Below, piece by piece: positions 33,801-63,142 of a stretch of 64,000 bases of DNA. The stretch is from Candidatus Gastranaerophilales bacterium. Lineage in GTDB: Bacteria > Cyanobacteriota > Vampirovibrionia > Gastranaerophilales > Gastranaerophilaceae. The notes below the pieces were generated by a model. The model was given only the letters and a program-made list of their open reading frames with translations, was not told the DNA's origin and ran no database searches. The number at the start of each line of letters is the position of its first letter. Within the stretch, counting starts at the first letter, position 1. The stretch lies in NCBI GenBank assembly GCA_944323685.1, contig CALUTJ010000010.1, forward strand, positions 1 to 64,000. Direction: 5' to 3'. A program made the translations under genes and the position numbers.

Positions 33801-35778
33801 TATTAGTATCAATAACACCGCTCAGTTTATCTGCAATAAGGTTTAAGATTTTGAACTTAAACTTATCACCCATTCTAAGCTTTGGATCTTTAGGGTCAAC
33901 CGTAGCCTGAGAAGTGTTGGAGGCCATGTGCAGATTCTGTGCGTTTACGGACACATTGCCGTCACCGTTTGTATTTACGGTAGTATCAATCTTAGCAGTT
34001 GTGTTGATATTTGTGTCTTTTAATGTTACGGCAACCGCAATACCGCCGTTATCTTTACCGATGCTTGCAATAGAATTTATATTGCTCAAATCGCTCGATA
34101 CGTTAACAGCATCAACCTCTACGTTAGCAGCGTTAATAATTGCACCGCTGTTTACCAGTGCGCTTGTTTGCGCATCAAGCGTTGATTTTAATAATAACAC
34201 CTGAATTGTCGGTATGCCGGTGTATCCGCCGACAAGCTGACCTGCGGCAGAGGTAGGATTTTTTAATTTAATATTGTGTGAGTTTTGAGATTGTGCGTGA
34301 ATATTAACGTCATTTCCCGCTGTAATTTTCGCACCGTCATTTACATTTATTGTAGAAATCGTTTTAGAACCAAGTGTATAGTAATACTCCTGACCCGAGT
34401 CAATTACGGGGGTGTATCTTGTACCTGTTTTGATTGAAGTATTTGCAACTGCAAGAGAATTTATATTAACATCATTATCGGCAATAATATCTGCACCGCT
34501 GCCGATTACGACCTCCGCTTTTGCTCTGGCGCCTTCAAAATCAAAACCTTCACCGGTTACGGCACCTTCTATAATTTGCCCGATAGCAGAGCTGTATGCA
34601 CTGTCAAACAATGTTGTACCGTCTTTTTGTGCGATATAATCAGCCTTGCTTGTTGCACTGATATCAACATTATTTCCTTTTAAAACGGCATTGTTAATAT
34701 CTACTTTTGCAAAATTTGTGTCGTTGTGTGCATTCGGATTTGTTGCATCAGAAGGAATTGAGTCTCTGACATAAGTTTCTAAAGCACTTTGTACGTTTTC
34801 TGAAGTTATGCCCAAGTCCCGTAATTCTTTAGGCAAAAGGTTTGTATCAAGTACATTGCCGTATTCGTCCACAAGCGGACCGGATAGATTATTAAGAACA
34901 AACTCTTGACCTTTAATAATTAATTTATCGCCAAGTGTAGGAGCAACAACAGTTTTAATTGATTGAGCCTGAATAACGATATTTCCGTTAGCATCTTTTG
35001 TAAATCCCGTACCGCTTTGCACCTTATTGTTTACAAGTGCGTCAAATAACTTTCCGGCAGCCTCTGTTGTTGCAAGTCTTTCGTTTACCTTTTGTCCTGC
35101 GTTTGTTACGGCAGCGTTATCTACACCGGCAAGAATACCGGCTTTATTATCTGCTGTGTTACCGACCTTAACAGTTTGAGCAACAAGGTTTACGTCCCCT
35201 CTGGCAATGATTTTACCGTTAACAGTGATATCAGAGCCCATATCGGAAGCTTTTAAAACAGCAAGATTGTTTTCATGCGTATAACCTTCCGGCAAAGCAG
35301 AGCCTATTGCAGAATCTGTCATATATTTTAAATACGCCTGCTGTGTAGGCGCAATGGCAGTCAGAGAGCCTACATTTATAACACCTGATGCACCGACAGC
35401 CATGCCGTTTGGAGAAACAAATATGGCATGCCCGCCTATATCACCGTTTTTTAAAATCCCGTTTAAAACACCGTTGATAATAATTCTGTTATCAACGAGG
35501 TTTACAAATTTATCAACGGAAATATCTCCGTTTTTAAGTGCAAAAATAAGGTTGGCAACATCGCCTTTACCAAGTTCAAAGTTGCCGTAATGTTTGAAAC
35601 CAAAATCACCATTGGCAAAATCAGGATGTATATCAAAAGAACCGCTTTGTCCGTTAGCAACTCCTGAAATATTAGATTCGGCAAATGCCGGCAATATCAT
35701 GGTCTGCTGCATAAAAAACAAAGATGTTAATACAAATGCAACAAGTTTTTTTACACTCAAATTAAATTTTAAAAACAT
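18826..35778 (-). CDS. Giant TpsA-type filamentous adhesin (LktA-like, 5,650 aa) with C-terminal PilZ domain
   Basis: One uninterrupted frame of nearly 17 kb. Residues 1-34 are a long signal peptide ending LPAFA. The next about 250 residues are a haemagglutination-activity (TPS) domain (GHAIFVSPNGMAVGASGVINVG), which targets the protein to a TpsB pore. The bulk is beta-helical repeat of the Fusobacterium leukotoxin LktA style: 75-85-residue units built on NxVNAxI...SxI...VxVxAxN, then shorter 20-25-residue units near 4600-4950. Linker tracts occur at about 1150-1165 (Ser/Gly) and 1510-1545 (GSTG repeats); coiled coils at about 3850-3915 and 4093-4142. There is no autotransporter barrel. The last about 115 residues form a PilZ domain. 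AGGG precedes ATG 35778. The partner transporter is divergent at 35967. Confidence 0.93.
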   Translation of the reverse strand: MFLKFNLSVKKLVAFVLTSLFFMQQTMILPAFAESNISGVANGQSGSFDIHPDFANGDFGFKHYGNFELGKGDVANLIFALKNGDISVDKFVNLVDNRIIINGVLNGILKNGDIGGHAIFVSPNGMAVGASGVINVGSLTAIAPTQQAYLKYMTDSAIGSALPEGYTHENNLAVLKASDMGSDITVNGKIIARGDVNLVAQTVKVGNTADNKAGILAGVDNAAVTNAGQKVNERLATTEAAGKLFDALVNNKVQSGTGFTKDANGNIVIQAQSIKTVVAPTLGDKLIIKGQEFVLNNLSGPLVDEYGNVLDTNLLPKELRDLGITSENVQSALETYVRDSIPSDATNPNAHNDTNFAKVDINNAVLKGNNVDISATSKADYIAQKDGTTLFDSAYSSAIGQIIEGAVTGEGFDFEGARAKAEVVIGSGADIIADNDVNINSLAVANTSIKTGTRYTPVIDSGQEYYYTLGSKTISTINVNDGAKITAGNDVNIHAQSQNSHNIKLKNPTSAAGQLVGGYTGIPTIQVLLLKSTLDAQTSALVNSGAIINAANVEVDAVNVSSDLSNINSIASIGKDNGGIAVAVTLKDTNINTTAKIDTTVNTNGDGNVSVNAQNLHMASNTSQATVDPKDPKLRMGDKFKFKILNLIADKLSGVIDTNILGSVSDLVPNASTALVVNDSNITTTAKIGANANIHADNVSVNANTVDLTVNTTKAHVKDGDSKASGSGSSGGVGDYIPNPGVAVIVNNQNNNTTAVIEDGTAQNHANVTADNKLSVNATTELPRNNATFDLILNVIQAAGDIEDLPEDIKGNVNAELGKGDQWDIRLLLQGLTNPAAEIGSEISDIKFGIKNGGIKNNLGLQGFFNNWAETTSSAGSGIGIAASVIVSDVVNNTVARIGDNSVINAGDVIVNAANQVVQYNAAGDVAKLWKLTDGASGKKSGVGGNVVVESVESNARAQVGDGAVINVTENAIGSTQNKTKGELNIQAANQQDFLTAVVTGSKATGNNGVAISGSVTVQNVTGATEASLGASKVNASTLNIKAGEAQLATAQNSEGYLFHESVPKKDEDGNIVYDEYGDPVYEESNPFEDLNAEDYEVGLDPDLTSPQISNYMGVDSDTGLLVLNEASTIKDGISNILIAGAIASESAKVSGSEGSGSSSSSSSGGAVGASVNVSQFDRDVKASIADGAVVNLTKDLNVISDSYTQSIDVAIAGAFAGGVKLSKKEDKKDTDSSFAGNKLAESNPLFSKVSGLFDKVSGKLGSTEAPVGSDANPDVNVNGNSYKADADGVYKDANGNKLTASDGNSTNDVKFQGSTGKEAANLDNLNSKNGQSKNISVAAAGSVNVQLNESSVTSEVGNAQITVGKDVNVEANQTTKSLNIGGGIAKAATVGAGAAVNFVENINETKASLKGTDITFKGSDNKLNVKAEENNDNVQVAIGVGVAKASQDDTTTQVSAGGSFNTDILENKVNAQIDGAKVKHESGADTIAVDVNAENHSTSYKGAGGMSVNTGSSGTGTGTGVGAGGSTGSTGSTGSTGATGAQSGNTSVGAGMGGNLNLITKETTAKITNSEINNTKSVSVAANKDKTQKTEDLISVGVGGSVITDASSGYSFSGAMATDVINNTINAQIDNSTVNSTGDVDVVANNNFNNRNLAGALSFSSASKGAGVGAGAIVSVINNNVNASIANNSTITAKDVNVNADNNENLQFLAANMGIQTGAGIPISANGIVNVIQNNISASVSDSYITNSGTLDIISDYDTSIEGITVGVAATSEGKFAVGANVLSNTLLSSNTAQLINSDTTSTDKLTVKATTDGNIDAIPAAAAITASGSAAAAANVGVNVVQNFTTAKIDGTNNKKSTTVSAGGIDVIASDNTKSRSRGGVLAATSGTAGIGASILADVYIKNVDAHIDNTTVTKGGDIKVNASAKNIFGEETPGSVTASALVDKITGDYDMSKDGAYENWDMTYGVAGGNTAGVAGSLISKNVINDVDSYIGSNVVIEDAGKIDVLASNKTDAAVIVGNITGAGTASVGGSIFSNVNVSTVDAGIKNGAQIGGAQIGSDTSRVGNVNVEANSEQTYKSIMAIVGAAGTAAVKGSINSNVIVNSTNAYVGNGVNMYSKSLNVAAADSMDSESLNIAVSAAGSAAVGGAVFTNVLANKVNSTVGKDGTDGQKSGNINTTGDVNVSANDDQNFQGNVLVTSAAGAAGVGAVAIANVMASEVNAGIENTTVKSNNGSVTISANNSFNGDHKDQNTGLQSLIDNGSVSSDDISNLIPLVGVITIGAAGSAGVSATLIANVVTTTVNAYVDNSTISTLNGLSVDADSSMTTYDAAIGIAVAGIAGVGVNGVTNVYSGSTIAAVTNSDIQKGSVNVTADDIFNLNTIIFTTAVSGTAAVTAITNVNTISNEVTAKVENTDITDAAKVNVAAKNTVKTTDVLAAGAVAGTGAAVSLAPIVNVFTNNTNAYINGGSIANAATTVNAGSDVDVISAILGVSGSGVGASVSGFAGVNVFDNDLNAYILKTEITNAISTSVASTANLDLDGILVSAGVNGLGAAVNANGIINVIKNNVNAYIADSSIKGGSVTVSATQTSDIDNSTSTVAVNGVGAAVPVNALVSVLTNNLNANITNTSVTDADLVSVSANNKQDILNNNIGVGASGTAAGGVNTTVNVLENTAKAYIDAQDKTIKASGKVSVAAKDEILMQTNLGLATVSGFGAGGANVNVNVINNAVLSQLISSDKGQIKADSVEVKSDSIIGLDEAGITAAAAGTLGIAGTVFVNSIGGKVSLSDENLKEAGIDDSITQANTNFGEIVNGITYEKDGQTLPLAGSYDLTQGDVKGGTQADINANVNTTGADGVKVSANNTLKGYDSDTMNITNATASAGTVAAGVGVLVTDMKYNTSASISGGNVVTQNNGDVTVKANSKVKSNTDAVAASVGGVSIAGNVAYFDNKANTTAEIANASVKSANDINVLAESDDSIISKAISASGGVVSVNLNIAVANTQNAINALISGNNVDIEANNLNLKATNTSILESELYGASAEFAGVSTVVNTAVSQAVSNALISLDNNSTVDVLNDLNIISQTGGINTINNVVIGSLGVYSATGNYQKAESNATFNSGITGGKISANNVKINAGTAKDSDEGGNITATVNTKKATGAFYSAGVTVVDARANGNATAKVTGGNVSANNNIDLKSKLNRTANIDSDSFSAGLVDINALVVSTSTGGHTNINTKDSTLSANNVNMLASSTNTTSASMVSGEVSLIGGDATVVEAVSGGNAKIDTGNINANNTNLKVDINRNAKITNNAKAISLAGLDVTNLEAKTTGTSGINTYGTIQNKAANGQAKNVVISTVDNSTATNESANTSIGFVSGSGLNIVTTSDSAITNNIAGTIKAQTLDIDSTLNRTAISNAASKGAGLVGLGAMNLTSQIGNANTTTISATIDAETVDVDSTMTSTVESYVRDFSAGLIALAYGATKNIVQDTAKNIVNFNGSINAGSLDADIDTLSKAHLFKESGNYGLFVVKGGELSNTLKATSELNLNNAKIETDRDALFSVVNNAKTPSEMQVTDDAGGFVVKDGAQLKNDLEIGASINVNGDTDVRAGDHLDLDITSGTTGFKQKVTSDGSGFTANNNASSIVTAVVNNNININDGLLSGKYVDINMNSSNELSSIAEVDTHHFAGNPSVNSEVNLTINNTLNVAGELFAQSETAGVNEDTSVNINFMGNSKQDLYQLADLYVEAAIATGDADGGINFTTNNNVNVKNNGVISSQKDINVVFDRGEEKLSSKIVYDRVSRLLFGIKIHDDGSYTSVKNESSNKVKVDGKLIAGKNNSMHLTIDKDGNATGTIQDNLYEKQDSTLIEAGKDSQAAKDEIAKIEQALIDLNSEKERLENINETNTANYESLLEQIDALKLQLAMAEYIQDVEDSGKISQNDFKNSIVTMLENNNVANAETVANQLLDYYTMAADDKTNLPIYSFTADGNNVILKYAVDENGNYITENGHYKFADLEGYTINYENNIPVSVTPDDSASVISVGTLTFDKYLEGLNLGEDTTDAIKTSLKGMKIDSQTATITTDSGTKTVRFLTTDGKIIYDSQYVDNMQSVSSEITAAENSANTLNETISSIADDLNDIKNQIKENEARKDNIAQNGLGEFKAENGSYIFKDINATSGTINIQANKGKSEVSGTGEIIMSLADVLINNYSNYNLIFSDLTVAGGVGSFVVDGKTVSENPYKGITISTTGTAGNEGGITINNWYDQNDPVNNTAIGVLPSNIIFNGTINTGVGNVNLYNESGDIEINDGIVANTLKVNVAQGSFTQDTKGQEYVLKAGDTLFAGKNINITASKITVEGNMQAGIADKNITITQDMLDNAVDETQKVIVTDADGTTPLKDANGNVQYKEVETGRLLVKLASGRDSSEGTKQSDYMYDKNNIKAIYDPDTNTVELFGVKVTDEANINLTTTSSDADALYVSENSSIKYADGYGAINIDNRTGANLVVNGLENNKIAGAVTYNGSTELPEYGTKIIEETKFGIHQIDKFPYIAIGEYTVETEKTVGFGANPQNTADATLTDGNTTVDTSKNKTGDLIVNGLVSSGNLTEDEAGLLLQTNGNLVINNRTASEDSDYQVPTIDTKGDVVLNKLTDKGGVIIQGLIKNSGSVSVTNNGTEGITVAGKINNEGADVVITNDSANGGIITVAGSEIKNNGADINLINNGTKGIETSGNILAAKGDINVTNKKGNINFKDGSSIKLNEGYTTQTNNINILNEDTAGAMTIAGAINNYGKGNIDIHNKGTGSALIDTTAVISNNNGNMLVTNENSSLTIAGTVSNTSGQTDVTNNGADGMLISGTVRNGKGVTNIVNNNTSDTSAIKIATTANVTNDDGTIYIKNYGTKEIGLDIEGIVNAIKQNIEITNENSDIEIGEYGSKNDFYVNAQNGNIIISQKNGDILNGVVDPDTQNKNQNHDLGNKDKAYKTLLTAGGNLSMNVEGGNIGADTHALNGKESGFGVNASTRDYTESINVKVNGTVNAKATNNGNALVNIRAKDSDLKVNNITSDGNVMLTAVDWKQADARPTPSDDSYYHGYSIVNAASDKSKANVEGRNISLISSDNLGTKGNAFTYNQLENGSISAMAENDLYIKGMGLNDNIWQLITKRGNMGLEFTGNAIIRELTAGKHLEIVSQGANLTIYDLGKSTNLADTDDILYPHDNILMSSVAPETVDIRVLDTNPDTRVNPNDANSTLNIYNAYIKGQSNGSADVTLRADNIIAHAYDAASSPVSNVARPDGFDATEGRLYANDYMNPDADKNLKATGFNTVGKGGKLVFDIQGVSPDDVVNAGGKESDRNYKPQDVIETVEIFNNPIGFKDTVYKAKDVTLSLNSGANAPTDNRGMEISKIYTDNAYVDTKDLNMHISDAFITNYGEFRNGNLGGQGGGHFISDEYRWLTIVDNDYYRNITNNFGIPVTSQLYTKLTGSFALNMGNVIALETKAPVVHYNPYEVILLPRTENSFYRLTYKDDKIQKTTTTPDFADIDKSTYKPTKRDSIRFAVKQGDGYVNIADKKKKKQERKRIIAIENISRGGIAVVHDGSLKKGERFVIDLDYHNIKASPEVEVVRVVNDRAGLKFINMDKATANKILYMNMFTADAEDQSPQMSKK
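18829..19173 (-). other. PilZ domain at the adhesin C-terminus
   Basis: Residues 5536-5650 of the adhesin carry RDSIR (RxxxR, 5536-5540) and NISRGG (N5570, S5572, G5575; [D/N]xSxxG), the two c-di-GMP-contacting motifs, with strands between and after them and the usual closing RAGLKFINMD followed by a helix. The spacing fits PilZ, allowing a lysine-rich insert (KKKKKQERKR) between the motifs. The frame is continuous with the adhesin and the start of the next gene lies outside it. Confidence 0.82.
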
Positions 35779-51975: not shown

Positions 51976-53043
51976 ATGCCTAAAATATCAGTAATTATGC
52001 CGACATACAAAGTCGAAAAATATTTCAGACAATGTATCGAAAGCGTTATCAACCAGACTTTAACTGATATTGAAATTATTCCCGTTGACGACGGTTCGCC
52101 TGACAATTGCGGTGCTATTATGGACGAATACGCGGCAAAAGACCCGCGAATAAAACCAATCCACCAGCCTAACGGCGGCTACGGCAAAGCTGTTAATGCA
52201 GGAATTGAAGCAGCAACAGGTGAATACATAGGCATTGTCGAAACAGACGACTTTATTGAGCCTGATATGTATGAAAAATTATACAATCAGGCAAAAAAGT
52301 TTGATGTAGATGTTTGCAAATGTGATTTTAACTACTATTTCGGCAACAACAAATACAAAAAATACGGAAAATTTTCTTTAGTTGCGCCGGAAGGTGAAGT
52401 TTTCACCATAAAAACAAACCCCAAAATTTTTGAATACCACGTTTCTATCTGGTCAGCCATATACAGACGCGAGTATTTAAACCAAAACAACATAAGGGTT
52501 ATTGAAACCAGAAGCGCAAGCTATCAGGATATGCCTTTTGCAGCAACAGTCTTTGCACAAGGTGCTGCTATAACGGTTTTACATGAGGCTTTAATCAACT
52601 ACAGAGCCGAAGAAGGTATGAACTCTTCCACAATCCGCACGGACGGATGGTTAAAACAAATGCCTGTTATGTGTATGGAAGCAATGAAAATATTTAAAGA
52701 AAACAACTGCTGGGAAGAAGTAAAATCCGTTGCATACAGGCAGTTTTATAATTGTTCGGTAAACATGTTTTTCCAAACAGAAACGCAATATCAAAAAGCT
52801 CACTTTGAGGAGCTGGTTAAATTGTTTGCTGACTTTGATAACAAATGCGCTTTTGGTTTTAAGAAAAAAGAACTTCGGGTAATCAATATGATACGGAAAA
52901 ATGATTTTAAACGTATGCGCAGATTCACCCAAAGATTTAAGTTCTTTTTAGCAATTAGAAAAGCCAGACAAAAATTTGTAAGTATAAGATGGAACAAGGA
53001 GGAAAAAGAAATACGTATATTCGGGAGAATTATACATGCCTAA
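51976..53043 (+). CDS. Family 2 glycosyltransferase
   Basis: A 355-residue GT-A glycosyltransferase. ISVIMPTYKVEKYFRQCIESV, VDDGSPDNCG and VETDDFIEPDM (the DxD-type metal site) are typical of family 2 enzymes that add one sugar from a nucleotide donor at the cytoplasmic membrane face. The C-terminal end, KEIRIFGRIIHA, is a short remnant-like match to the linker module of the following genes. GGAGTGAGAGAAA precedes ATG 51976. Base composition is closer to the housekeeping genes than to the next gene. It overlaps the next gene by eight bases. Confidence 0.9.
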   Translation: MPKISVIMPTYKVEKYFRQCIESVINQTLTDIEIIPVDDGSPDNCGAIMDEYAAKDPRIKPIHQPNGGYGKAVNAGIEAATGEYIGIVETDDFIEPDMYEKLYNQAKKFDVDVCKCDFNYYFGNNKYKKYGKFSLVAPEGEVFTIKTNPKIFEYHVSIWSAIYRREYLNQNNIRVIETRSASYQDMPFAATVFAQGAAITVLHEALINYRAEEGMNSSTIRTDGWLKQMPVMCMEAMKIFKENNCWEEVKSVAYRQFYNCSVNMFFQTETQYQKAHFEELVKLFADFDNKCAFGFKKKELRVINMIRKNDFKRMRRFTQRFKFFLAIRKARQKFVSIRWNKEEKEIRIFGRIIHA

Positions 53044-54988
53044 GGTGTCGGTTATTATACCTGTTTATAACGTGGAAGGATATCTACGACAGTGTCTTGA
53101 TAGTGTTATCAATCAATCTCTTAAAGACATAGAAATTATTTGTATTAATGACGGTTCCACAGATAATTCACTAAGTATTCTTGAAGAATATGCGCAAAAA
53201 GATTCAAGAATTATCATCATTAATCAAAAAAATCAAGGAGTCGCTGCGGCTAGAAATAAAGGGTTAGAAATTGCTCAAGGAGATTATATATGGTTTGTTG
53301 ACTCAGATGATTATGTTGAACAAAGTGGTCTAGAATACGTTTTAGAAGTGGCAAAAGAAAATAAAGCCGATATTATTTGTTTTGGAGTTAACGATATAAA
53401 TGATTCAACAATTACTCCAAGGTTCACAACGCAATATTTATCTAAATTCAATATATGCACTGAAGTTGAACTGAATATAAAAAAACATTTTTTAAATAAT
53501 ATATGGGACAAACTCTTTTTGAGAGAATTTTGCCAAAGTAATATTAAATTCCCTACTGGAATTCAAACAGCAGAGGATGGAATATTCAATTTATTATGTT
53601 TGTATAGAGAGCCCAAATATTTATTTATCAATAAAACACTATATAATTACAAAATTGATAGGCAAAACTCTGCAACAAACAATTCAAAAAATGTAATGAA
53701 CAATGATTTGACAGCATTCAAATATATAACTAGGTCTAATGAGTTTTTAACAACATCTGATAAATACAAAATCATTACAATAGAAAAATTTATTGATGGA
53801 ATATTATATTATTTTTATAAATATGAAAACCTGAAGTATGCCTTATTGTATGCAAAACAAATTAAAAAATATAAAGAATATCTTTTTAATAACATCGATA
53901 AAAAAATTTTTGATAAATGCAATAATATAGAAAAACTAAAAAAACTTACACTCACAAAAATAATTTTAAAACAAATATTTTCAATATCTAATAAAAACAA
54001 TAACGGCAATAAAATAAAATTACTAACTTTACTGGGGGTTAATTTTGTATTATCCCCCCCCAAAAAGAAAAAGAACAAAAAGAAAAAAAATCCAATCTTT
54101 CTATTCTTTAAAAACATAACATATTTAACACGATTTAACCTAAAAGAAATTAATCAAAAGCAAGAAACTCCACTTGATTTTGCAGTATTAAGCGAAATTG
54201 CATTATACAAGATGAAGTCCAAGCAAAATGCATTATTACTGCCAATTATAAAAAACAACTTTGAAACAATAGAAGAGTTAATCAATACAGAAAAAAGTAT
54301 TATTCGTTTTGGTGAAGGTGAATTTAAATTAATGGAAGGTTACAATATCGACTACCAATTTGGTAATGAAAAAATTGCCTCAATTTTAAAAGAAATTTTT
54401 TATGAAGATAACCCAAATTTAATGACCGGTACGATATGGGAATATTATGACTTTTCTATAGATTTAACATCTCATACAAAACAATACATTTATAACTGGA
54501 TACAGTCCGGTTGGTATCATAAAATTGAAAAATTTTATAATAAAACAAAAACATATTATTCCGCATTTATTTCTATGGTTTTTGCTGAATACGAAAAATA
54601 CGAATTTGAAAAACACTACGCTTTATTAAGAAAGATTTGGGATAACAAAAATATAACATTAGTAATAGGTGATAGGGTTTTAGATAATATTGAATTTTTT
54701 ATTTTTGATAACGCAAAAAATATAAATTACATATACGGACCAACACAAAACGCATATTCTCAAATAGACATATTAAGAGAAAAACTCAAACAATCCGATA
54801 AAAATGATATTTTTATTTTTGCTATTGGTCCTTGCGGCAAAATTTTAGCTTATGAAATGTACCAAGCTGGATACAGAGTCCTTGATTTAGGTCATTTAAT
54901 AAAAGACTATAATTTTTACCAAAAAGCCCAAAATATGAGTAAAGAAGCAATAGAAAAAGAAAGATTAAAATTCTTTTTACCTGACTAA
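53036..54988 (+). CDS. Bifunctional glycosyltransferase: family 2 plus GT-D (DUF1792-like) domain
   Basis: A 650-residue two-domain protein. Residues 1-300 are a family 2 domain (VSVIIPVYNVEGYLRQCLDS, INDGSTDNS, VDSDDYV). Residues about 311-345 are the shared linker (KQIFSISNKNN...LLTLLGVNF) followed by a lysine-rich patch (KKKKNKKKKN). Residues about 395-650 resemble the GT-D/DUF1792 fold, with IIRFGEGEF near 420 and GPTQNAYSQID near 565. Two sugar transfers by one polypeptide are likely. The gene is strikingly AT-rich compared with its neighbours, suggesting transfer. Confidence 0.85.
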   Translation: MPKVSVIIPVYNVEGYLRQCLDSVINQSLKDIEIICINDGSTDNSLSILEEYAQKDSRIIIINQKNQGVAAARNKGLEIAQGDYIWFVDSDDYVEQSGLEYVLEVAKENKADIICFGVNDINDSTITPRFTTQYLSKFNICTEVELNIKKHFLNNIWDKLFLREFCQSNIKFPTGIQTAEDGIFNLLCLYREPKYLFINKTLYNYKIDRQNSATNNSKNVMNNDLTAFKYITRSNEFLTTSDKYKIITIEKFIDGILYYFYKYENLKYALLYAKQIKKYKEYLFNNIDKKIFDKCNNIEKLKKLTLTKIILKQIFSISNKNNNGNKIKLLTLLGVNFVLSPPKKKKNKKKKNPIFLFFKNITYLTRFNLKEINQKQETPLDFAVLSEIALYKMKSKQNALLLPIIKNNFETIEELINTEKSIIRFGEGEFKLMEGYNIDYQFGNEKIASILKEIFYEDNPNLMTGTIWEYYDFSIDLTSHTKQYIYNWIQSGWYHKIEKFYNKTKTYYSAFISMVFAEYEKYEFEKHYALLRKIWDNKNITLVIGDRVLDNIEFFIFDNAKNINYIYGPTQNAYSQIDILREKLKQSDKNDIFIFAIGPCGKILAYEMYQAGYRVLDLGHLIKDYNFYQKAQNMSKEAIEKERLKFFLPD

Positions 54989-54999
54989 GAAAGGCCTTT

Positions 55000-56847
55000 A
55001 TGTTTATTTCTGTAATAATACCAGTATTTAATGTAGAAAAATATATTGAACAATGTATTGAGAGCGTAATAAATCAAACGCTCAATGATATTGAAATAAT
55101 TTGTGTTAATGATGGTTCTACAGACAAATCTTTAGAAATTTTGAAAAAATATCAACAAAAAGATGCACGAATAAAAGTATTTAATCAAGAAAATAAAGGA
55201 GCAGGAGCCGCCAGAAATAAGGGACTAGAAATAGCAAGAGGTGATTACATATACTTTCTTGACGGTGATGATTACATAGAACCATTTGCTTTAGAAAAGC
55301 TGTACACACAAATTACCCAAAATAATGCCGATATATGCTTGTGCAAGCATAAAACATTAGATAATACAACACAAACAATGCAAATTGAAGAAAATACTTT
55401 ACAAGTAGACTTATTTGCAACAAACAATATATCAAGAAAAACCGTTCCAGATCGAATTTTTCAATTATGTACACCTCAAATAGCACTAAAATTATACAAA
55501 AAATCATTCATAAAAAAATACGACTTAAACTTTCAGGAGCTAAAAACTTGTAATGATGTATATTTCAGCCTAGCTTCATTAGCTCTAGCTAAAAATATAA
55601 CCTATGTTAATGAACCATTACTTATATATCGAACTAATAGAAAGGACTCATTAACTATAACAAGAGGAAATAATTCTTTATGCATAATTAATGCTTTTAA
55701 CCAATTAAAGGATAAGCTAATACAAGAAAATGTTTTTAACATTGTTGAAAATTCTTTTTATTCAAGTGCACTTGGGGCATTTAAATACGAATTAAATTTA
55801 TGTAATCCAATACAAAAAAAAGAATTTTTATACAAAATACAGCTATTCCTTCCTGAAAAATATTATAAAATGCTGCAAACCAAAAAACAGTTAAAACCTT
55901 TACAAAAAATCTTTTCACTAACCAATCAAGACACGCACAAAGTGCTAACAGTCCTCGGGATTTCAATAAAATTTAAACGTAATCCAATATGTTTTATCAA
56001 ACATATTGACAAAAACAAACTTAAAAAACAGCTAAATATGTGTGAATACGGAATAACCACACAAAAGAGAACTCCGCAGCTCATTGTTTCTTTGACATCG
56101 TTTCCGCAGAGAATGTACGACATACATTTTTGCTTATATTCTCTGTTAAACCAATCATTAAAACCGGACAGGTTAATACTCCGGTTAGCAGAAGAAGAGT
56201 TTCCAAACAAAGAAAAAGACATACCAAACACTGTATTGTCCTTTCTTGAAAAAGGTCTTGAGATAAAATGGTGCAAAAACATTAAATCATATAAAAAGCT
56301 TATACCTGCACTAAAAGAATATCCTGACGCAATAACAGTAACAGCCGATGACGACATTTATTACCCTGTAGATTGGCTGGAGAAGTTATACCAATCTTAT
56401 CAAAAAAATCCTGAATACATTCATTGTCACAGGGCGCATAAAATACTGTTTGACACTAACAATACTATTATGCCTTATAAAAATTGGAAAAGTGAAACAA
56501 CAGAGCACTCACCATCTTTAAAAATTTTTTGTACGACCGGCGGCGGGGTATTATATCCGCCACAATGTTTATACAAAGATGTACTAAACGAAGAATTGTT
56601 TACAAAACTTGCACCGAATGCTGATGACATCTGGTTTTGGGCTATGGCAGTTTTGCAGGGGACAAAAATAAAAGTTGTTGATGACAACATAAAACAGCTC
56701 ACCTACATAAATCCCGAGCGTGAACTCGGATTAAATAACGAGATAACCCTGTGTTCCCAAAACTGCGGCAACGGACAAAACGATATTCAGCTTGCAAATG
56801 TTTTAAAACAGTATCCACAAATTATGGAGAGAATATTTCATGAGTGA
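55000..56847 (+). CDS. Bifunctional glycosyltransferase: family 2 plus second GT-A-like domain
   Basis: A 615-residue protein. Residues 1-290 are a family 2 domain (ISVIIPVFNVEKYIEQCIES, NDGSTDKS, LDGDDYIEP). Residues about 300-328 are the shared linker (KIFSLTNQDTHKVLTVLGIS). Residues about 358-615 form a second transferase (LIVSLTSFPQRMYDIHFCLYS, TADDDIYYP as metal site near 448, TTGGGVLYPP, NADDIWFW). The first domain is very AT-rich while the second returns to the local average, so the gene looks like a splice of two sources at the linker. It overlaps the next gene by eight bases. Confidence 0.87.
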   Translation: MFISVIIPVFNVEKYIEQCIESVINQTLNDIEIICVNDGSTDKSLEILKKYQQKDARIKVFNQENKGAGAARNKGLEIARGDYIYFLDGDDYIEPFALEKLYTQITQNNADICLCKHKTLDNTTQTMQIEENTLQVDLFATNNISRKTVPDRIFQLCTPQIALKLYKKSFIKKYDLNFQELKTCNDVYFSLASLALAKNITYVNEPLLIYRTNRKDSLTITRGNNSLCIINAFNQLKDKLIQENVFNIVENSFYSSALGAFKYELNLCNPIQKKEFLYKIQLFLPEKYYKMLQTKKQLKPLQKIFSLTNQDTHKVLTVLGISIKFKRNPICFIKHIDKNKLKKQLNMCEYGITTQKRTPQLIVSLTSFPQRMYDIHFCLYSLLNQSLKPDRLILRLAEEEFPNKEKDIPNTVLSFLEKGLEIKWCKNIKSYKKLIPALKEYPDAITVTADDDIYYPVDWLEKLYQSYQKNPEYIHCHRAHKILFDTNNTIMPYKNWKSETTEHSPSLKIFCTTGGGVLYPPQCLYKDVLNEELFTKLAPNADDIWFWAMAVLQGTKIKVVDDNIKQLTYINPERELGLNNEITLCSQNCGNGQNDIQLANVLKQYPQIMERIFHE

Positions 56848-57871
56848 TATAAAAGTTTCGATAATTATACCTGTTCATAATGCGGAGAAATATCTTAACA
56901 AATGTTTGGATTCAGTTATTAACCAAACACTACAAAATATTGAAATCATCTGTATTAACGATGATTCTACTGATAATTCATCTAAAATACTTGAATCATA
57001 TTCTAAAAAAGATAACAGAATAAAAATTATTAATACAAATTGCCACTGTTCCGGCGGAGCAAGGAACAAAGGATTGGCAATTGCTTCAGGTGAATACATT
57101 GGTTTCATTGATTCTGATGACTGGATTGATCTCGATTATTTTGAAAAGTTATATAATCTGGCACAAACTACAGGAACAGACATTGCTGCAACAAGCTCTG
57201 TAAACATAATACAAAACAACAAGCTTCTTTATAAAAAGGAGACAGGCGCTGATGCAACCCAAAACCCTGTTGATTCAATGATAAAAAAAGCAAAGGTTAT
57301 TACCACTACAGGAATATGCTGTAACAAAATTTATAAAACATCGATGTTAAAAAAATATAATATTCAATTTTTAGAAATTAACAACCCGTCAGAAGATAAT
57401 TATTTCAATATCTGTTCTATTATTGTTGCCAATAAATTAATGTTTTTAGACGACTCTGATTATTATTACAATTTTGTCCAGTCTTCCCAAACCAAAAGGC
57501 AAAAAACTCAAAAAGATTTTCAAATGACAACAGTCTACAAACAAATTATTGAAAAAATTTCTACTTTTGAACTTGATGAAGATATCAAACAAGACTGGAT
57601 AGGCATTGTAAAAAAACGCCTAGCAAACGATGTGCTTGTATATTGTGAAGAGATGAATAAATCATTACAAAAACAATTTTTAAAACATGTAGAAAATGAA
57701 TTTCCCGACATACAAACATACTTGCCTAAAAAAAATAAAACTAAAGAATTTATTCAACAAATATTTTCACTAAAAAATGAAAATATAAACAATCAATCAT
57801 ATAAATGTTTTAGGATATTCGGTATTAAATTTTTGTTCAAAAAGGAGAAAGTTAAATGCTGTCTATTATAA
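56840..57871 (+). CDS. Family 2 glycosyltransferase with C-terminal linker module
   Basis: A 343-residue family 2 enzyme (VSIIIPVHNAEKYLNKCLDS, INDDSTDNS, IDSDDWIDLDYF). It stops right after the shared module (QIFSLKNENINNQSYKCFRI, then FGIKFLFKK), with no second catalytic domain. It therefore looks like the front half of the two-domain architecture of its neighbours. It overlaps the next gene by 16 bases. Confidence 0.9.
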   Translation: MSDIKVSIIIPVHNAEKYLNKCLDSVINQTLQNIEIICINDDSTDNSSKILESYSKKDNRIKIINTNCHCSGGARNKGLAIASGEYIGFIDSDDWIDLDYFEKLYNLAQTTGTDIAATSSVNIIQNNKLLYKKETGADATQNPVDSMIKKAKVITTTGICCNKIYKTSMLKKYNIQFLEINNPSEDNYFNICSIIVANKLMFLDDSDYYYNFVQSSQTKRQKTQKDFQMTTVYKQIIEKISTFELDEDIKQDWIGIVKKRLANDVLVYCEEMNKSLQKQFLKHVENEFPDIQTYLPKKNKTKEFIQQIFSLKNENINNQSYKCFRIFGIKFLFKKEKVKCCLL

Positions 57872-59808
57872 TTCCAACATTACAAAAAAATACAGATATT
57901 TTATATAAATTACTTCAAGAACTAACAGAAGATAACACTATTGGAGAGGTAATAATTATAGACAACTCTTTAAAAGGTTTAAATTATACATCTGATAAAG
58001 TTAAAGTTATTTTGCCTAAAAAAAATTTATATGTTAATCAAGCTTGGAATCTTGGAATACAACATATTAAATATGAGTATTTTGGAATTCTTAATGATGA
58101 TATTTTGTTACCAAAAAACTATTGCTCACAAGTATACGAATTTTTAAAGGCAAATAATAATGCCGGTCTTATCGGCTTAGACTCTTCTTCCGTAGACCAT
58201 ATGCCAATTGAAAATTTTAGCAGCTATCCGCCAAATTCTCAGCTTGTATTCCACCCTATGGAAAACAAATTGTATACAATATGCTGGGGGTCAGCAATAT
58301 TCGGAAAAAAAGAAAATTATTATGAAATTCCAAAAAGTTTAAAAATATGGTGCGGAGATAATTATCTCTTAAAAAAGAATATTGACAACAAAAAAATTTG
58401 TTATGAAGTAAAAAATACCCAAATAAAACATGTGAAGTCTTTGACATGCAATAATCCAGTTTTTGACAAAATAAAACAGAAAGATATTGACAATTACGCA
58501 AAAATTGATAAGCAGTTTAAATCCCACAGTAGTTATAAAAAAAATAGTTTTATTCAAAAAATCTTTTCCATAAAAAATGAAGGGGAACGAAAAGTATTAA
58601 GAATACTAGGCTTTAAAATAAGTAAAAAGTATAAAAAATACCAATCTAAAAAATATAAACTCGCTTATGCAAATCAAATAATTGAAAATAACATAAAAAA
58701 AAGTGATTGTTTTGTGCCTCTCTCAAAAGAGCAGTATAACAATAGCAATGATACAAAATTAATTGCTTTTTACCTTCCACAATTTCACACATTTAAAGAA
58801 AACGAAGAGTGGCACGGCAAAGGTTTTACGGAATGGACTAATGTAACCAAAGCTATTCCTCAATTTACAGGTCATCATCAACCCCAATTGCCGATTGACG
58901 TCGGGTTTTATGATTTGTCGACAGACAAAATAATGTACCGCCAGATTGAATTAGCCAAACAATACGGTATATCAGGTTTTTGTTTCTATTACTACTGGTT
59001 TTCAGGCAAACGTTTGATGGAAAAACCAATTTTTAATTACCTGAATAATAAAGAGCTGAATCTTCCCTTTTGCCTTTGTTGGGCTAACGAAAATTGGTCG
59101 CGCAGATGGGATGGCGGAGATAGCGAAGTACTCATAGAACAAAAACTCCAAGACGGTGACGGAATAAAATTTATACATGACATAATGCCGTTTTTTAAAG
59201 ATGAAAGGTATATCAAAATAAACAACAAACCGGTACTTATTATCTACAGAGCACAGCTGTTTGATAGAGAGAAAATGCTTAAATTTATTGAAGAAATAAG
59301 AAACGGCGCCAAAGAAGCAGGATTTGACGACTTGTATTTAATGATGGCAAGAACATCGCCCACATATACCCCAAAAGATTTTGGTATTGATGCGGCTGTA
59401 GAATTTCCTCCGCTTTTAATTGACTCAAAACTTCCCTTGTATAAACCGCATACATATATCAATCCTAATTTTGCAGGCAGAATATTTGATATAAGCAATT
59501 TTATAAAAAATAAATCTTATATTTATGACACAGATTATACTCTTTATAAAGCAGTATTTCCAGGCTGGGATAATACAGCGCGTAAAGCTTACACAGGTGC
59601 CTGGGTATTTGAAACAGAGCCTGATTTATATAAAGACTGGCTAAAAGGCTGCATTGACTGGACAAAACAACACAACAAAGACACGGAACAATTTGTCTTT
59701 ATAAACGCGTGGAACGAATGGGCAGAAGGCGCTCACCTTGAACCCGATCAAAAATACGGTTATGCCTATCTTCAAGCAACCAAAGAAGCACTGGAGGAGA
59801 CAGTTTAA
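57856..59808 (+). CDS. Bifunctional glycosyltransferase: family 2-like plus WbsX domain
   Basis: A 650-residue protein. Residues 1-225 are a compact family 2-like domain (LSIIIPTLQKNTDILYKLLQ, IIDNSLKG, GILNDDILLP as metal site, CWGSAIFGKK). Residues about 230-265 are the linker (KIFSIKNEGERKVLRILGFK). Residues about 300-650 are a WbsX-type domain of O-antigen and rhamnan clusters (AFYLPQFHTFKENEEWHGKG, EWTNV, FCFYYYWFSGKRLM, CWANENWSRRWDG, INAWNEWAEGAHLEPD). AAGGAG precedes ATG 57856. The WbsX half is less AT-rich than the first half. Confidence 0.88.
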   Translation: MLSIIIPTLQKNTDILYKLLQELTEDNTIGEVIIIDNSLKGLNYTSDKVKVILPKKNLYVNQAWNLGIQHIKYEYFGILNDDILLPKNYCSQVYEFLKANNNAGLIGLDSSSVDHMPIENFSSYPPNSQLVFHPMENKLYTICWGSAIFGKKENYYEIPKSLKIWCGDNYLLKKNIDNKKICYEVKNTQIKHVKSLTCNNPVFDKIKQKDIDNYAKIDKQFKSHSSYKKNSFIQKIFSIKNEGERKVLRILGFKISKKYKKYQSKKYKLAYANQIIENNIKKSDCFVPLSKEQYNNSNDTKLIAFYLPQFHTFKENEEWHGKGFTEWTNVTKAIPQFTGHHQPQLPIDVGFYDLSTDKIMYRQIELAKQYGISGFCFYYYWFSGKRLMEKPIFNYLNNKELNLPFCLCWANENWSRRWDGGDSEVLIEQKLQDGDGIKFIHDIMPFFKDERYIKINNKPVLIIYRAQLFDREKMLKFIEEIRNGAKEAGFDDLYLMMARTSPTYTPKDFGIDAAVEFPPLLIDSKLPLYKPHTYINPNFAGRIFDISNFIKNKSYIYDTDYTLYKAVFPGWDNTARKAYTGAWVFETEPDLYKDWLKGCIDWTKQHNKDTEQFVFINAWNEWAEGAHLEPDQKYGYAYLQATKEALEETV

Positions 59809-62330
59809 TGAAATTGCTTGTTCATTTACATTTATATTATCAAAATCAAATAAATTATTTTATAAATAAACTCAAAAATATAAATCATTGTGAGTGGGAT
59901 TTATTCGTCACCTATTGTGAAGAAAATCCTGAAGTGAAAAATAAATTATTAAAGTTAAATCCAAATACAAAATTTATTAAAACAGAAAATATTGGATATG
60001 ACATTTTACCCTTCATAAAAGTGATTCAATCTGTCAACTTATCTGATTACGATTATATTTTAAAGTTACACACTAAAAACAAATACAAAAATTTTGTTAC
60101 TTATGCTTCATATAAAGCAAAAGGTTACGACTGGAGAAATGCACTAATTGAACCTTTAATCGGTTCAAAAAATATTTTTTTAAACAACTTATTATTGTTG
60201 AAAAAAACTGGCAACATCGGGCTTATATGTTCTAAAGATTATTTAATTGATATAAATAAATATTCTTTAAAAGAGGATTTAGAAAATCTTAAAAAAGTAA
60301 AACAAGCATTTAATATAAAAAGTCAATATCCTTATTTTGTTGCAGGTACAATGTTTCTTGCAAGAGCGTGTTGTTTTCAAAAGCTCGCTAATACAGCTAT
60401 TAAAGAAAACGATTTTTCCAATTATTCACAAACACGTGTAAGCGGCTCTTTCGCACATAGTTTCGAAAGACTATTTTGTCTTCTTGTTGAGGACAACGGT
60501 TTCAAAATTTATCCTGTTAAAAACAATTTTGCAAAAATCAAATCATACATAAAGTATTCATTATTTTCGAATATCTTATCACTCAAAAATGAATATAAAA
60601 ACAATCGGAAAATAAAACGATTGGTTTTATTGGGAATAAAACTGAACTTAACTCAATTCAAAAAAGATTTAAACATATCTCTTTACAAAATACAAAAACC
60701 GTTTAGAAAAGCAAAAACTGTTTGTTACACCTGCATAACAGGCAACTATGCACAATTATACAGCCACGATTATATAAACTACGGCTGGGATTATATTTGC
60801 TTTACAGATAACAAAAATCTTCTGAAGAAAAAACAAACAGGTATATGGCAAATACGTCCGCTTGTTTTTAATAAACTCGATAATACAAAAAACAACAGAT
60901 GGCACAAAATGCACCCGCATATATTATTCCCTGATTATGAACAAAGCCTGTATGTAGACGGCAATGTTAATATACTTACGCCTTATTACTCAAAATTGAT
61001 TGCACAAACAAAACTCAATATGCTATTACCCGAGCATTATCAAAACAATTGCGTATACAAAGAACTTGATTACATTGTTGAATTAAATAAAGAAACTAAA
61101 GAAAAAATTGACGTTTTGCGAAACAAATACAGACAGGAACAAATGCCTGAAAAACTGGGATTAACCGAAAACAACATAATTTTTAGAAAACACAAAGAAC
61201 CGCAAATCATAAAAATTATGGAAGAATGGTGGCAAATGGTCGAAAACTATTCCAAACGCGATCAGGCAAGCTTTATGTATGTAATATGGAAAAACGGCAT
61301 AGATATAAGTAAACATACCTTTCAAAATGCAAGATATGACTATAAAAACTGTGAATTACAAAAACAAAATTATCCAGTTATGGGCAAAAACATACTAATC
61401 ACAGGCGGGGCAGGTTTTATAGGTTCAACTCTGGCAGACAGATTGATTAAAGAAGCTAATAAAGTTGTTGTTATCGACAATTTTAACGACTACTATGACC
61501 CGCAAATAAAAGAAAACAACGTAAAAGACAATATTAATAATGAAAATTACAAATTATACAGAGGGGATATAGAAGACATAGATTTTGTAGAGAAAGTCTT
61601 TGAGGAAAACTCAATTGATATGGTTGTCCATATCGCAGCACGCGCAGGTGTAAGACCTTCTTTAGAAAATCCGCTTGCCTATACAAAAACCAATATCGAA
61701 GGTACAGTTAACATTTTAGAAGCAATGCGAAAACATTATGTTAAAAAAATAGTCTTTGCTTCTTCTAGCTCTGTTTATGGCAACTGCAAAGCAGAAAAAT
61801 TTTCAGAAGATTTAAAGGTGACAGAGCCTATCTCGCCTTATGCGGCTACAAAATCAGCGTGTGAGCAATTTTTATACACTTATTCAAAGCTTTATGATAT
61901 GCAGGCTTTGTGTTTAAGGTTTTTCACGGTCTTTGGTCCACGCCAGCGTCCTGACCTTGCGATAAGAAAATTTATCGAACTTATTGAACAGGATAAACCA
62001 ATACCCGTTTACGGCGACGGTACAACAATGAGAGATTACACATATATAGATGATATTGTTGAAGGAGTAATGTCTGCCTTAAATTACAATGCAACAAAAT
62101 ACGAAATTATAAACCTCGGCGGCGGTGCGCCCGTAACCTTAAACGGAATGATTGAAACCATTGAGAAGGTGCTGGGTAAAAAAGCAAAAATCGATAAACT
62201 CCCTATGCAGCCCGGGGACGTGGATAAAACAGTGAGTGACATAACAAAAGCAAAAAAACTTTTGGGCTACTGCCCGCAAACAACTTTTGAAGAAGGCATC
62301 AGAAAATTTGTAGAATGGAGAAAGAAATAA
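59808..62330 (+). CDS. Three-domain fusion: RgpF-like, DUF616-like and UDP-sugar epimerase
   Basis: An 840-residue protein. Residues 1-245 resemble the RgpF/rhamnan-synthesis family (ENIGYDILPFIKVI, YDYILKLHTKN, FVAGTMFLARA). Residues about 253-290 are the shared linker (ILSLKNEYKNNRKIKRLVLL). Residues about 303-520 look like a DUF616 transferase (YTCITGNYAQL, CFTDNKNLL, SLYVDGNVNI, RDQASFMYV). Residues 525-840 are a full-length extended SDR epimerase (GGAGFIG at 532-538, SSSSVYGN, SPYAATKSA with the catalytic Tyr and Lys, MRDYTYIDDIV), most like UDP-glucuronate/UDP-glucose 4-epimerase. An in-frame ATG opens the epimerase but has no ribosome-binding site. GGAGGAG precedes ATG 59808. Confidence 0.86.
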   Translation: MKLLVHLHLYYQNQINYFINKLKNINHCEWDLFVTYCEENPEVKNKLLKLNPNTKFIKTENIGYDILPFIKVIQSVNLSDYDYILKLHTKNKYKNFVTYASYKAKGYDWRNALIEPLIGSKNIFLNNLLLLKKTGNIGLICSKDYLIDINKYSLKEDLENLKKVKQAFNIKSQYPYFVAGTMFLARACCFQKLANTAIKENDFSNYSQTRVSGSFAHSFERLFCLLVEDNGFKIYPVKNNFAKIKSYIKYSLFSNILSLKNEYKNNRKIKRLVLLGIKLNLTQFKKDLNISLYKIQKPFRKAKTVCYTCITGNYAQLYSHDYINYGWDYICFTDNKNLLKKKQTGIWQIRPLVFNKLDNTKNNRWHKMHPHILFPDYEQSLYVDGNVNILTPYYSKLIAQTKLNMLLPEHYQNNCVYKELDYIVELNKETKEKIDVLRNKYRQEQMPEKLGLTENNIIFRKHKEPQIIKIMEEWWQMVENYSKRDQASFMYVIWKNGIDISKHTFQNARYDYKNCELQKQNYPVMGKNILITGGAGFIGSTLADRLIKEANKVVVIDNFNDYYDPQIKENNVKDNINNENYKLYRGDIEDIDFVEKVFEENSIDMVVHIAARAGVRPSLENPLAYTKTNIEGTVNILEAMRKHYVKKIVFASSSSVYGNCKAEKFSEDLKVTEPISPYAATKSACEQFLYTYSKLYDMQALCLRFFTVFGPRQRPDLAIRKFIELIEQDKPIPVYGDGTTMRDYTYIDDIVEGVMSALNYNATKYEIINLGGGAPVTLNGMIETIEKVLGKKAKIDKLPMQPGDVDKTVSDITKAKKLLGYCPQTTFEEGIRKFVEWRKK

Positions 62331-62416
62331 TGAAACGAAAAAGATACCCCCTGGGCAACAACATCTAAAAATATAACTGAATGGATAGCACTGTGAAAAC
62401 GCAAAAAGGAGAAAAT

Positions 62417-63142
62417 ATGAATATACTACAACAACTATTTTCCATTAAAAACGAATACATAAACAATAAAAAATACAAGTATATAACACTGTTTGGTATA
62501 AAAATAAAGAGCAGGGCAGAGCAGCCGCCTACCTTATTATACCATCTTGACAGATACAATGAAAGAAATAATTGGCCCAGATATGAACTCAGTCAGGAAC
62601 AAATACAAAATTGCAAACTTGTTGCAAATCGAACAAAACTTCTGGAACTTATGCCAAAAGAAGGCGTATTTGTTGAAATAGGAACAGCAAAAGGTGATTA
62701 CGCAAAACAAATACTTGAAATTTGCAAACCTAAAAAATTATATCTGATAGACTTTTGGGCTATGGGTAACGAAGACTGGGAACCATTTGTACGAGAAAGA
62801 TTTAAAAATGAAATTCAAAGCGGGCAAGTTGTGATATTAAAAGGTGACTCGATTGAAATGTTAAAAAAAATAGAAGATAAAAGTTTAGATTTTGCATACA
62901 TAGATGCATTTCACGACTATGAACATCCCAAAAATGAACTGAATACATTAAAAAATAAAATGAAAGATTCAGGATATATATGCGGACACGATTATACCAG
63001 GGTCGAAATTGTAGATTGCACACAATACGGAATAATTGAAGCAGTTAATGAATTTTTATACAAAAATGACCAATATGAACTTTGCTACTTAACTATGGAT
63101 CATCTGTTTATGAATCCATCTTACGCAATAAAAAAGATATAA
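62417..63142 (+). CDS. Class I SAM methyltransferase with N-terminal linker module
   Basis: A 241-residue protein from ATG 62417 (AAAGGAGAAAAT before it; an upstream in-frame start at 62381 is less likely). It opens with the shared module (QLFSIKNEYINNKKYKYITL, then FGIKIK). The methyltransferase part follows: VFVEIGTAKGDYAKQI (motif I), LYLIDFWAMG, LKGDSIEMLKKI, LDFAYIDAFHDYEHPKNEL and GGHDY-like CGHDYTRVE. It resembles the Methyltransf_24 group found in glycan clusters and could methylate a sugar of the polysaccharide. Confidence 0.85.
   Translation: MNILQQLFSIKNEYINNKKYKYITLFGIKIKSRAEQPPTLLYHLDRYNERNNWPRYELSQEQIQNCKLVANRTKLLELMPKEGVFVEIGTAKGDYAKQILEICKPKKLYLIDFWAMGNEDWEPFVRERFKNEIQSGQVVILKGDSIEMLKKIEDKSLDFAYIDAFHDYEHPKNELNTLKNKMKDSGYICGHDYTRVEIVDCTQYGIIEAVNEFLYKNDQYELCYLTMDHLFMNPSYAIKKI

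What the first reader, a model, noticed from the sequence alone, without database searches (positions are those of the whole stretch)
59808..62330. Glycosyltransferase-glycosyltransferase-epimerase triple fusion
One 840-residue frame joins an RgpF-like domain, a DUF616-like transferase and a full-length UDP-sugar 4-epimerase. Fusing the enzyme that makes a UDP-sugar epimer to transferases could channel the donor. The epimerase begins at an in-frame ATG (61380), so separate translation of the epimerase is also possible although no ribosome-binding site is seen.
Basis: partly seen in the sequence, partly recalled or inferred. Interest (0 to 1): 0.55.

Follow-up and report, generated by a model that had tools for sequence, protein, structure and literature searches.

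The report
Fused sugar epimerase and two transferases
One capsule-type gene in a gut bacterium joins two sugar-adding enzymes to the enzyme that probably makes their sugar donor (UDP-galacturonic acid); relatives keep these as neighbouring separate genes, so the fusion suggests what a little-studied bacterial transferase family uses as its donor.

Summary
Window 59808-62330 (+) is one open 840-codon frame with one strong ribosome-binding site, at 59808. [quoted passage not shown] PF04765 is the GT116 family of the plant galacturonosyltransferase RGGAT1/MUCI70, so the best reading is that the epimerase makes UDP-GalA for the attached DUF616 domain. Relatives support the link: DUF616 lies 5' of this epimerase in 10 of 32 other family loci examined, a Brachyspira plasmid has RgpF-RgpF-DUF616-epimerase as four consecutive separate genes, and four family genomes carry a different, older RgpF-epimerase fusion. 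The DUF616-epimerase fusion was seen only here; a sense codon stands where two relatives have a stop. The epimerase is a 96%-identical island shared with a sister species, with unrelated DNA on both sides, so the fusion looks like a recent product of locus mosaicism. Separate translation of the epimerase is unlikely. Channelling, substrates and activity are untested.

The parts
59793..59799 (+). GGAGGAG ribosome-binding site of the fusion gene, inside the end of the upstream WbsX-type gene
   Evidence: sequence; duplex energy -9.3 kcal/mol
59808..62330 (+). 840-codon triple-fusion ORF
59811..60500 (+). RgpF-type domain (residues 2-231), matching the C-terminal half of PF05045
   Evidence: E 4e-25, 88.9 bits against cut-off 25
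60567..60656 (+). about 30-aa linker module between RgpF and DUF616 domains; one of 11 copies in the genome
60705..61367 (+). DUF616/TOD1_MUCI70 (GT116) domain, about residues 300-520; Pfam core 336-501
   Evidence: model with mean pLDDT 90.6; GT-A fold matches
61374..61376 (+). CCA (Pro) codon in the place where the DUF616 genes of L007 and L008 have a stop
   Evidence: same spacing to the epimerase start in L007/L008
61380..61382 (+). in-frame ATG proposed as separate epimerase start; no Shine-Dalgarno pairing, not the ancestral start position
61389..62330 (+). UDP-glucuronic acid 4-epimerase-type domain; 96.2% DNA identity to L009 over exactly this stretch, unrelated DNA on both sides

Best explanation
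The ORF makes one protein with three enzymatic parts: an RgpF-type glycosyltransferase, a DUF616/GT116 glycosyltransferase and a UDP-glucuronic acid 4-epimerase. UDP-glucose dehydrogenase, encoded 5.4 kb downstream, makes UDP-GlcA; the fused epimerase turns it into UDP-GalA; the DUF616 domain transfers GalA into the cell-surface polysaccharide made by this locus. The fusion arose in a mosaic capsule-type locus: the epimerase gene persists as a conserved block while neighbouring genes are exchanged, and here an RgpF-DUF616 gene was joined upstream with no stop, ribosome-binding site or native start left between them. Shown: the frame, the domains, the conserved active-site residues, the recurrent neighbourhood and the exchange boundaries. 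Inferred: substrates, donor coupling, and action as one polypeptide.
For: One frame, one ribosome-binding site. Best solved relatives of the epimerase: 5u4q, then BcUGAepi 6zl6. Aligned to BcUGAepi by hand, S653, S654, S655, Y678, T707 and R714 match the residues that papers assign to carboxylate binding and catalysis (passages), K682 is the Lys of YxxxK; in 41 other epimerases compared these positions are S 40, S 40, S 41, Y 41, T 39, R 41 and K 41. PF04765 = GT116, the family of the plant galacturonosyltransferase RGGAT1/MUCI70 (passages). DUF616 lies 5' of, or is fused to, the epimerase in 11 of 33 family places for which DNA was held, of 38 found (the window is one of the 11; G267 is only a 58-aa fragment; in G132 an RgpF domain lies between). 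From the other side, 10 of 30 DUF616 domains in 366 genomes sit there (matched by hand). Brachyspira plasmids: RgpF-RgpF-DUF616-epimerase as consecutive genes. UDP-glucose dehydrogenase at C10:67711. Window against L009 epimerase: 29 changes in synonymous and 7 in nonsynonymous codons, dN 0.0095, dS 0.163. All 32 columns invariant in 13 DUF616 sequences include the window's.
Against: No other genome searched has DUF616 and epimerase in one frame. The near-invariant C-terminal His of DUF616 (12 of 13) is Gln in the window, next to the junction. 20 of 30 DUF616 domains lie away from this epimerase. A second, unfused epimerase (72% identical) exists at C5 in the same genome, so the fused one need not be the only supply. 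The full-length model was too poor to judge the domain arrangement (mean pLDDT 56.8, pTM 0.37). No activity is measured.
Confidence: 0.6

Rival explanations
1. Neutral accident: recombination in a mosaic polysaccharide locus joined the genes; the domains work as they would apart and the fusion brings no channelling.
For: Fusion found in one genome; separate genes in all other DUF616-epimerase pairs held. The epimerase is a 96% island with unrelated DNA on both sides. A separate paralogue exists at C5.
Against: A different RgpF-epimerase fusion is kept over two genera (4 of 383 genomes, 63-69% identity between them and the query), so fusion of this epimerase to a transferase can persist. Coding sequence is conserved.
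Confidence: 0.3
2. The donor is another UDP-sugar: the epimerase acts on UDP-Glc or UDP-GlcNAc and the DUF616 domain is not a galacturonosyltransferase.
For: Several epimerase types share the fold; the best-scoring NCBIfam model is galE (206.6 bits). GT116 activity is reported for the plant enzyme only; the solved GT-A structures it resembles share 6-14% sequence identity and use various donors.
Against: The galE score is below its curated cut-off of 262.3. Active-site residues match UDP-GlcA 4-epimerases. UDP-glucose dehydrogenase is in the same locus.
Confidence: 0.15
3. The epimerase is also made separately from ATG 61380.
For: In-frame ATG at the domain start.
Against: No Shine-Dalgarno pairing (0 kcal/mol); most relatives have -2 to -8.8 at their starts, though one (L078) also has none. 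The ATG is not at the ancestral start.
Confidence: 0.07
4. Assembly error joined two genes.
For: Draft genome in 44 contigs; no reads to check; the junction occurs in no other genome seen.
Against: The site lies inside an 81.6-kb contig; the frame runs on with conserved codons on both sides, and the codon there differs from any stop by more than one base.
Confidence: 0.05

Closest known systems
UDP-glucuronic acid 4-epimerase (BcUGAepi, 6zl6; MoeE5, 6kv9)
   Same: Extended SDR family, YxxxK, S/T-S-S, Thr and Arg of the carboxylate site
   Different: Here the C-terminal part of an 840-aa protein; the solved ones are chains of about 310-350 residues
GT116 / DUF616 / TOD1_MUCI70 (plant RGGAT1 = MUCI70)
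   Same: PF04765 match over cut-off; predicted GT-A fold
   Different: Bacterial and fused to other enzymes; activity unknown
RgpF, rhamnan synthesis protein F (PF05045)
   Same: Residues 2-231 match the C-terminal half of the model
   Different: Only half of the model; joined to DUF616 and epimerase
RgpF-epimerase fusions of four family genomes (L079, L080, L081, L112)
   Same: Transferase domain N-terminal to the same epimerase family; a DUF616 gene next door in L079/L113 and L112
   Different: Other half of PF05045, no DUF616 in the protein, separate branch of the epimerase tree
Engineered galactosyltransferase-GalE fusions (recalled, no call)
   Same: Epimerase joined to a transferase so that the donor is made in place
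   Different: Man-made; UDP-Gal instead of UDP-GalA

Membership tests
UDP-glucuronic acid 4-epimerase | Extended SDR with TGxxGFIG nucleotide site and YxxxK | tested here: met
   Epimerase PF01370 E 4.4e-60; Y678 and K682, also present in 41 of 41 others
UDP-glucuronic acid 4-epimerase | Carboxylate-binding residues T126/S127/S128, T178, R185 of BcUGAepi | tested here: met
   S653/S654/S655, T707, R714 by alignment; T126 is Ser here, as in 40 of 41 other epimerases compared
UDP-glucuronic acid 4-epimerase | UDP-GlcA to UDP-GalA activity | not testable with these tools
   needs an assay
GalE, UDP-glucose 4-epimerase | Score over the curated TIGR01179 cut-off | tested here: not met
   206.6 bits against 262.3
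GT116 / DUF616 (PF04765) | Match over the Pfam gathering score | tested here: met
   47.3 bits against 21.4
GT116 / DUF616 (PF04765) | GT-A fold | tested here: met
   model mean pLDDT 90.6; glycogenin Z 13.0 (rmsd 3.1, 174 aligned), GT6 enzymes Z about 12.5 (rmsd about 3.9, about 198 aligned)
GT116 / DUF616 (PF04765) | Galacturonosyltransferase activity | not testable with these tools
   reported for the plant enzyme only
RgpF (PF05045) | Match over the gathering score | tested here: met
   88.9 bits against 25, first 260 residues
RgpF (PF05045) | Whole-length model covered | tested here: not met
   positions 271-502 of 503 only
Single-polypeptide fusion | Uninterrupted frame with one translation start | tested here: met
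   the protein product itself was not tested

The most novel reading that the evidence does not exclude
Bacteria hold a conserved, mobile module (two RgpF-type transferases, a GT116 galacturonosyltransferase and a UDP-GlcA 4-epimerase, with dTDP-rhamnose genes in the same genome) that builds a rhamnose-galacturonate glycan resembling the plant rhamnogalacturonan I backbone, and it has been fused at least twice into multi-enzyme synthases that make their own donor.
Probability: 0.15. Interest if true: 0.7.

Novelty: new variant of a known kind. Interest (0 to 1): 0.45.

Why it matters
I found no paper that gives a bacterial DUF616 protein a donor sugar. Repeated placement beside, and here fusion to, a UDP-GlcA 4-epimerase predicts UDP-GalA, which one expression experiment could test. 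The case also shows how mosaic capsule-type loci can create multi-enzyme proteins when genes upstream of a conserved sugar-nucleotide gene are swapped.

Tried and rejected
Full-length structure: alignment A1 mis-aligned the separate DUF616 and RgpF rows onto the epimerase, A3 mis-aligned the RgpF rows; A2 (6 rows) aligned but gave a poor model (mean pLDDT 56.8), so nothing is claimed about domain arrangement.

Alphaproteobacterial origin was considered because the named relatives L007 and L008 are so labelled; the alpha_tmRNA family was not found in the genome. The phylum sample has genomes of 5-9 Mb and one-contig genomes of about 1.7 Mb, which I read, as a guess, as Cyanobacteriota with a gut lineage such as Gastranaerophilales.

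Papers on epimerase-transferase fusion: 0 papers; 1, listing only, off topic; 3, listings only, off topic. A junction pattern found nothing in viral contigs. An earlier count said 11 of 30 DUF616 domains are next to the epimerase; the recount from the listed places is 10 of 30.

The linker copies were compared as possible recombination sites: within the genome they are only 50-71% alike as DNA, which does not support recent exchange among them, though one copy is 93% identical over 70 bases to a copy in the sister species.

Left out of counts: L011 was dropped from alignment A4; five of the 38 epimerase places (G272, G195, G331, G343, G363) had no DNA held and are not among the 33. G360 in the 33 has only 109 bases upstream, so it could hardly show a DUF616 gene.

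Full report
Observation. Window 59808-62330 (+) holds one open frame of 840 codons, inside an 81.6-kb contig of a 2.3-Mb genome. Its start overlaps the stop of the gene before it and is preceded by GGAGGAG (-9.3 kcal/mol with the usual anti-SD). Residues 2-231 match the C-terminal half of RgpF PF05045 (E 4e-25; not listed when the whole protein was scanned). Residues 336-501 match TOD1_MUCI70/DUF616, PF04765 (E 2.3e-12), and 529-771 the Epimerase family (E 4.4e-60).

Junction. In two alphaproteobacterial relatives, L007 and L008, DUF616 and epimerase are separate genes with a stop, three bases and the start codon, in the same phase. The window has the same spacing, with a Pro codon in the place of the stop. 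In eight family loci with separate DUF616 and epimerase genes the two are in another phase and mostly overlap or nearly touch. The window's ATG 61380 has no Shine-Dalgarno pairing; relatives mostly have -2 to -8.8 kcal/mol, one (L078) none (the script picked the nearest start codon, which for a few loci is not the likely one). The ATG also lies one or two codons before the start used by relatives. A separate epimerase product is therefore unlikely.

Origin. The epimerase DNA 61389-62330 is 96.2% identical to L009 (which I take to be the same record as G021 contig 27, both 25,270 bases). The match runs from near the start of the gene to its stop codon, with unrelated DNA on both sides. In L009 the gene follows a different, 944-aa transferase and is separate. 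The two loci also share a GT2 gene (84% DNA identity) and the UDP-glucose dehydrogenase region (94.7%), with largely different genes between. This looks like a mosaic surface-polysaccharide locus in which the epimerase and the dehydrogenase stay and the transferases change. Differences between the two epimerases are mostly silent: 29 in synonymous and 7 in nonsynonymous codons, dN 0.0095, dS 0.163.

What the epimerase does. The closest solved proteins are 5u4q (E 1.7e-73, labelled dTDP-glucose 4,6-dehydratase) and the UDP-GlcA 4-epimerase BcUGAepi, 6zl6 (5.6e-57; labelled 'Epimerase domain-containing protein', identified as BcUGAepi from recall). Papers read in passages (PMC7984243; PMC12338863) give Thr126, Ser127, Ser128 and Thr178 as carboxylate-binding, Tyr149 as catalytic base and Arg185 as holding the carboxylate of UDP-GalA. 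By the alignment these are S653, S654, S655, T707, Y678 and R714; they are nearly unchanged in 41 other epimerases. The galE model scores below its cut-off. The likely reaction is UDP-GlcA to UDP-GalA. The gene for UDP-glucose dehydrogenase, which makes UDP-GlcA, starts at C10:67711, past the window's end (named from recall of the family).

What DUF616 does. PF04765 is CAZy GT116; the plant member MUCI70/RGGAT1 has reported in vitro galacturonosyltransferase activity on RG-I (passages of PMC10576798; PMC11765706; PMC11062476; the original report was not read). A 13-row model has mean pLDDT 90.6 and matches GT-A enzymes: glycogenin Z 13.0, GT6 transferases about Z 12.5, the bacterial GT6 enzyme 4ayj with TM-score 0.60. 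The 32 columns invariant in 13 sequences include D384 and N386 of the window; the near-invariant C-terminal His is Gln in the window, next to the junction.

Neighbourhood. Of 38 epimerase places in 383 family genomes, DNA was held for 33; DUF616 lies 5' or is fused in 11 of the 33, the window included and one (G267) a 58-aa fragment; in G132 an RgpF domain lies between. Of 30 DUF616 domains in 27 of 366 genomes, 10 are in that position and 20 are not (matched by hand from the listed places). DUF616 is the C-terminal domain of larger transferases in several of these loci: DUF4422-GT8-DUF616 in L046 and GT2-DUF616 in L120 by Pfam, GT2-GT8-DUF616 in L117 by Pfam plus tblastn. On plasmids of Brachyspira hyodysenteriae (found) two RgpF genes, DUF616 and an epimerase follow each other as separate genes, and the plasmid also has rfbBADC; against the window they are 32% (RgpF1), 38% (DUF616) and 61% (epimerase) identical. 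The Klebsiella Kp13 capsule cluster also has a PF04765 gene with ugd, uge and rmlBADC (passages of PMC3438125; capsule composition predicted there, not measured).

Second fusion. Four of 383 genomes of the order sample (G132, G085, G023, G185; two genera) have an RgpF-epimerase fusion; the other three are 63-69% identical to that of G132 over nearly the whole length. Its RgpF part matches the other half of PF05045 and the second Brachyspira RgpF. A tree puts these epimerases on one branch (100/100) and the window with L009 (100/100); the bootstrap had not fully settled. So fusion of this epimerase to a transferase happened at least twice. In the phylum sample of 386 genomes the only listed frame with DUF616 and epimerase together is the window's; the list was cut at E about 3e-69.

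Verdict. A real, probably recent triple fusion in a mosaic locus, built from genes that are neighbours elsewhere. The strongest lesson is the prediction that bacterial DUF616/GT116 transferases use UDP-GalA. That the fusion helps by channelling is possible, not shown. A dTDP-sugar isomerase (RmlC family) is in the genome at C6:78195, so rhamnose supply is likely; that leaves open, but does not show, a rhamnose-galacturonate polymer.

Noticed in passing
53969-54058, 55903-55983, 57755-57847, 58555-58635, 60567-60656, 62429-62518; also C10:65122, C5:94375 and C3:129551-131697 outside the window: A module of about 30 residues (FS.KNE...LGIKIK type) recurs 11 times in the genome, between or at the ends of transferase, methyltransferase and other domains of polysaccharide-type genes. 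Three C3 copies were not used to build the profile. Function unknown; possibly a docking or membrane-contact tag.
   Followed up: partly
55908-55977: This 70-base stretch of the linker is 93% identical to a copy in a different gene of L009, with less similar DNA around it: possible site of domain exchange.
   Followed up: partly
62331-62416: Just after the epimerase stop lies what may be a broken remnant of a coding sequence; the next gene more likely starts at 62417, which has a good ribosome-binding site, than at 62381.
   Followed up: partly
53036-59808: Neighbouring genes are also multi-transferase proteins: GT2 with GT-D, GT2 with WbsX.
   Followed up: no
18826-35778 (-): A 5650-codon open frame.
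   Followed up: no
L016 84-3302 (C10:69084-72302): Genes that look like a CDP-glucose pathway (cytidylyltransferase, 4,6-dehydratase, aminotransferase-like) just past the locus (named from recall of the families).
   Followed up: no
L014 6481-7446 (C5): A separate paralogous epimerase, 72% identical, after a GT2 gene.
   Followed up: partly
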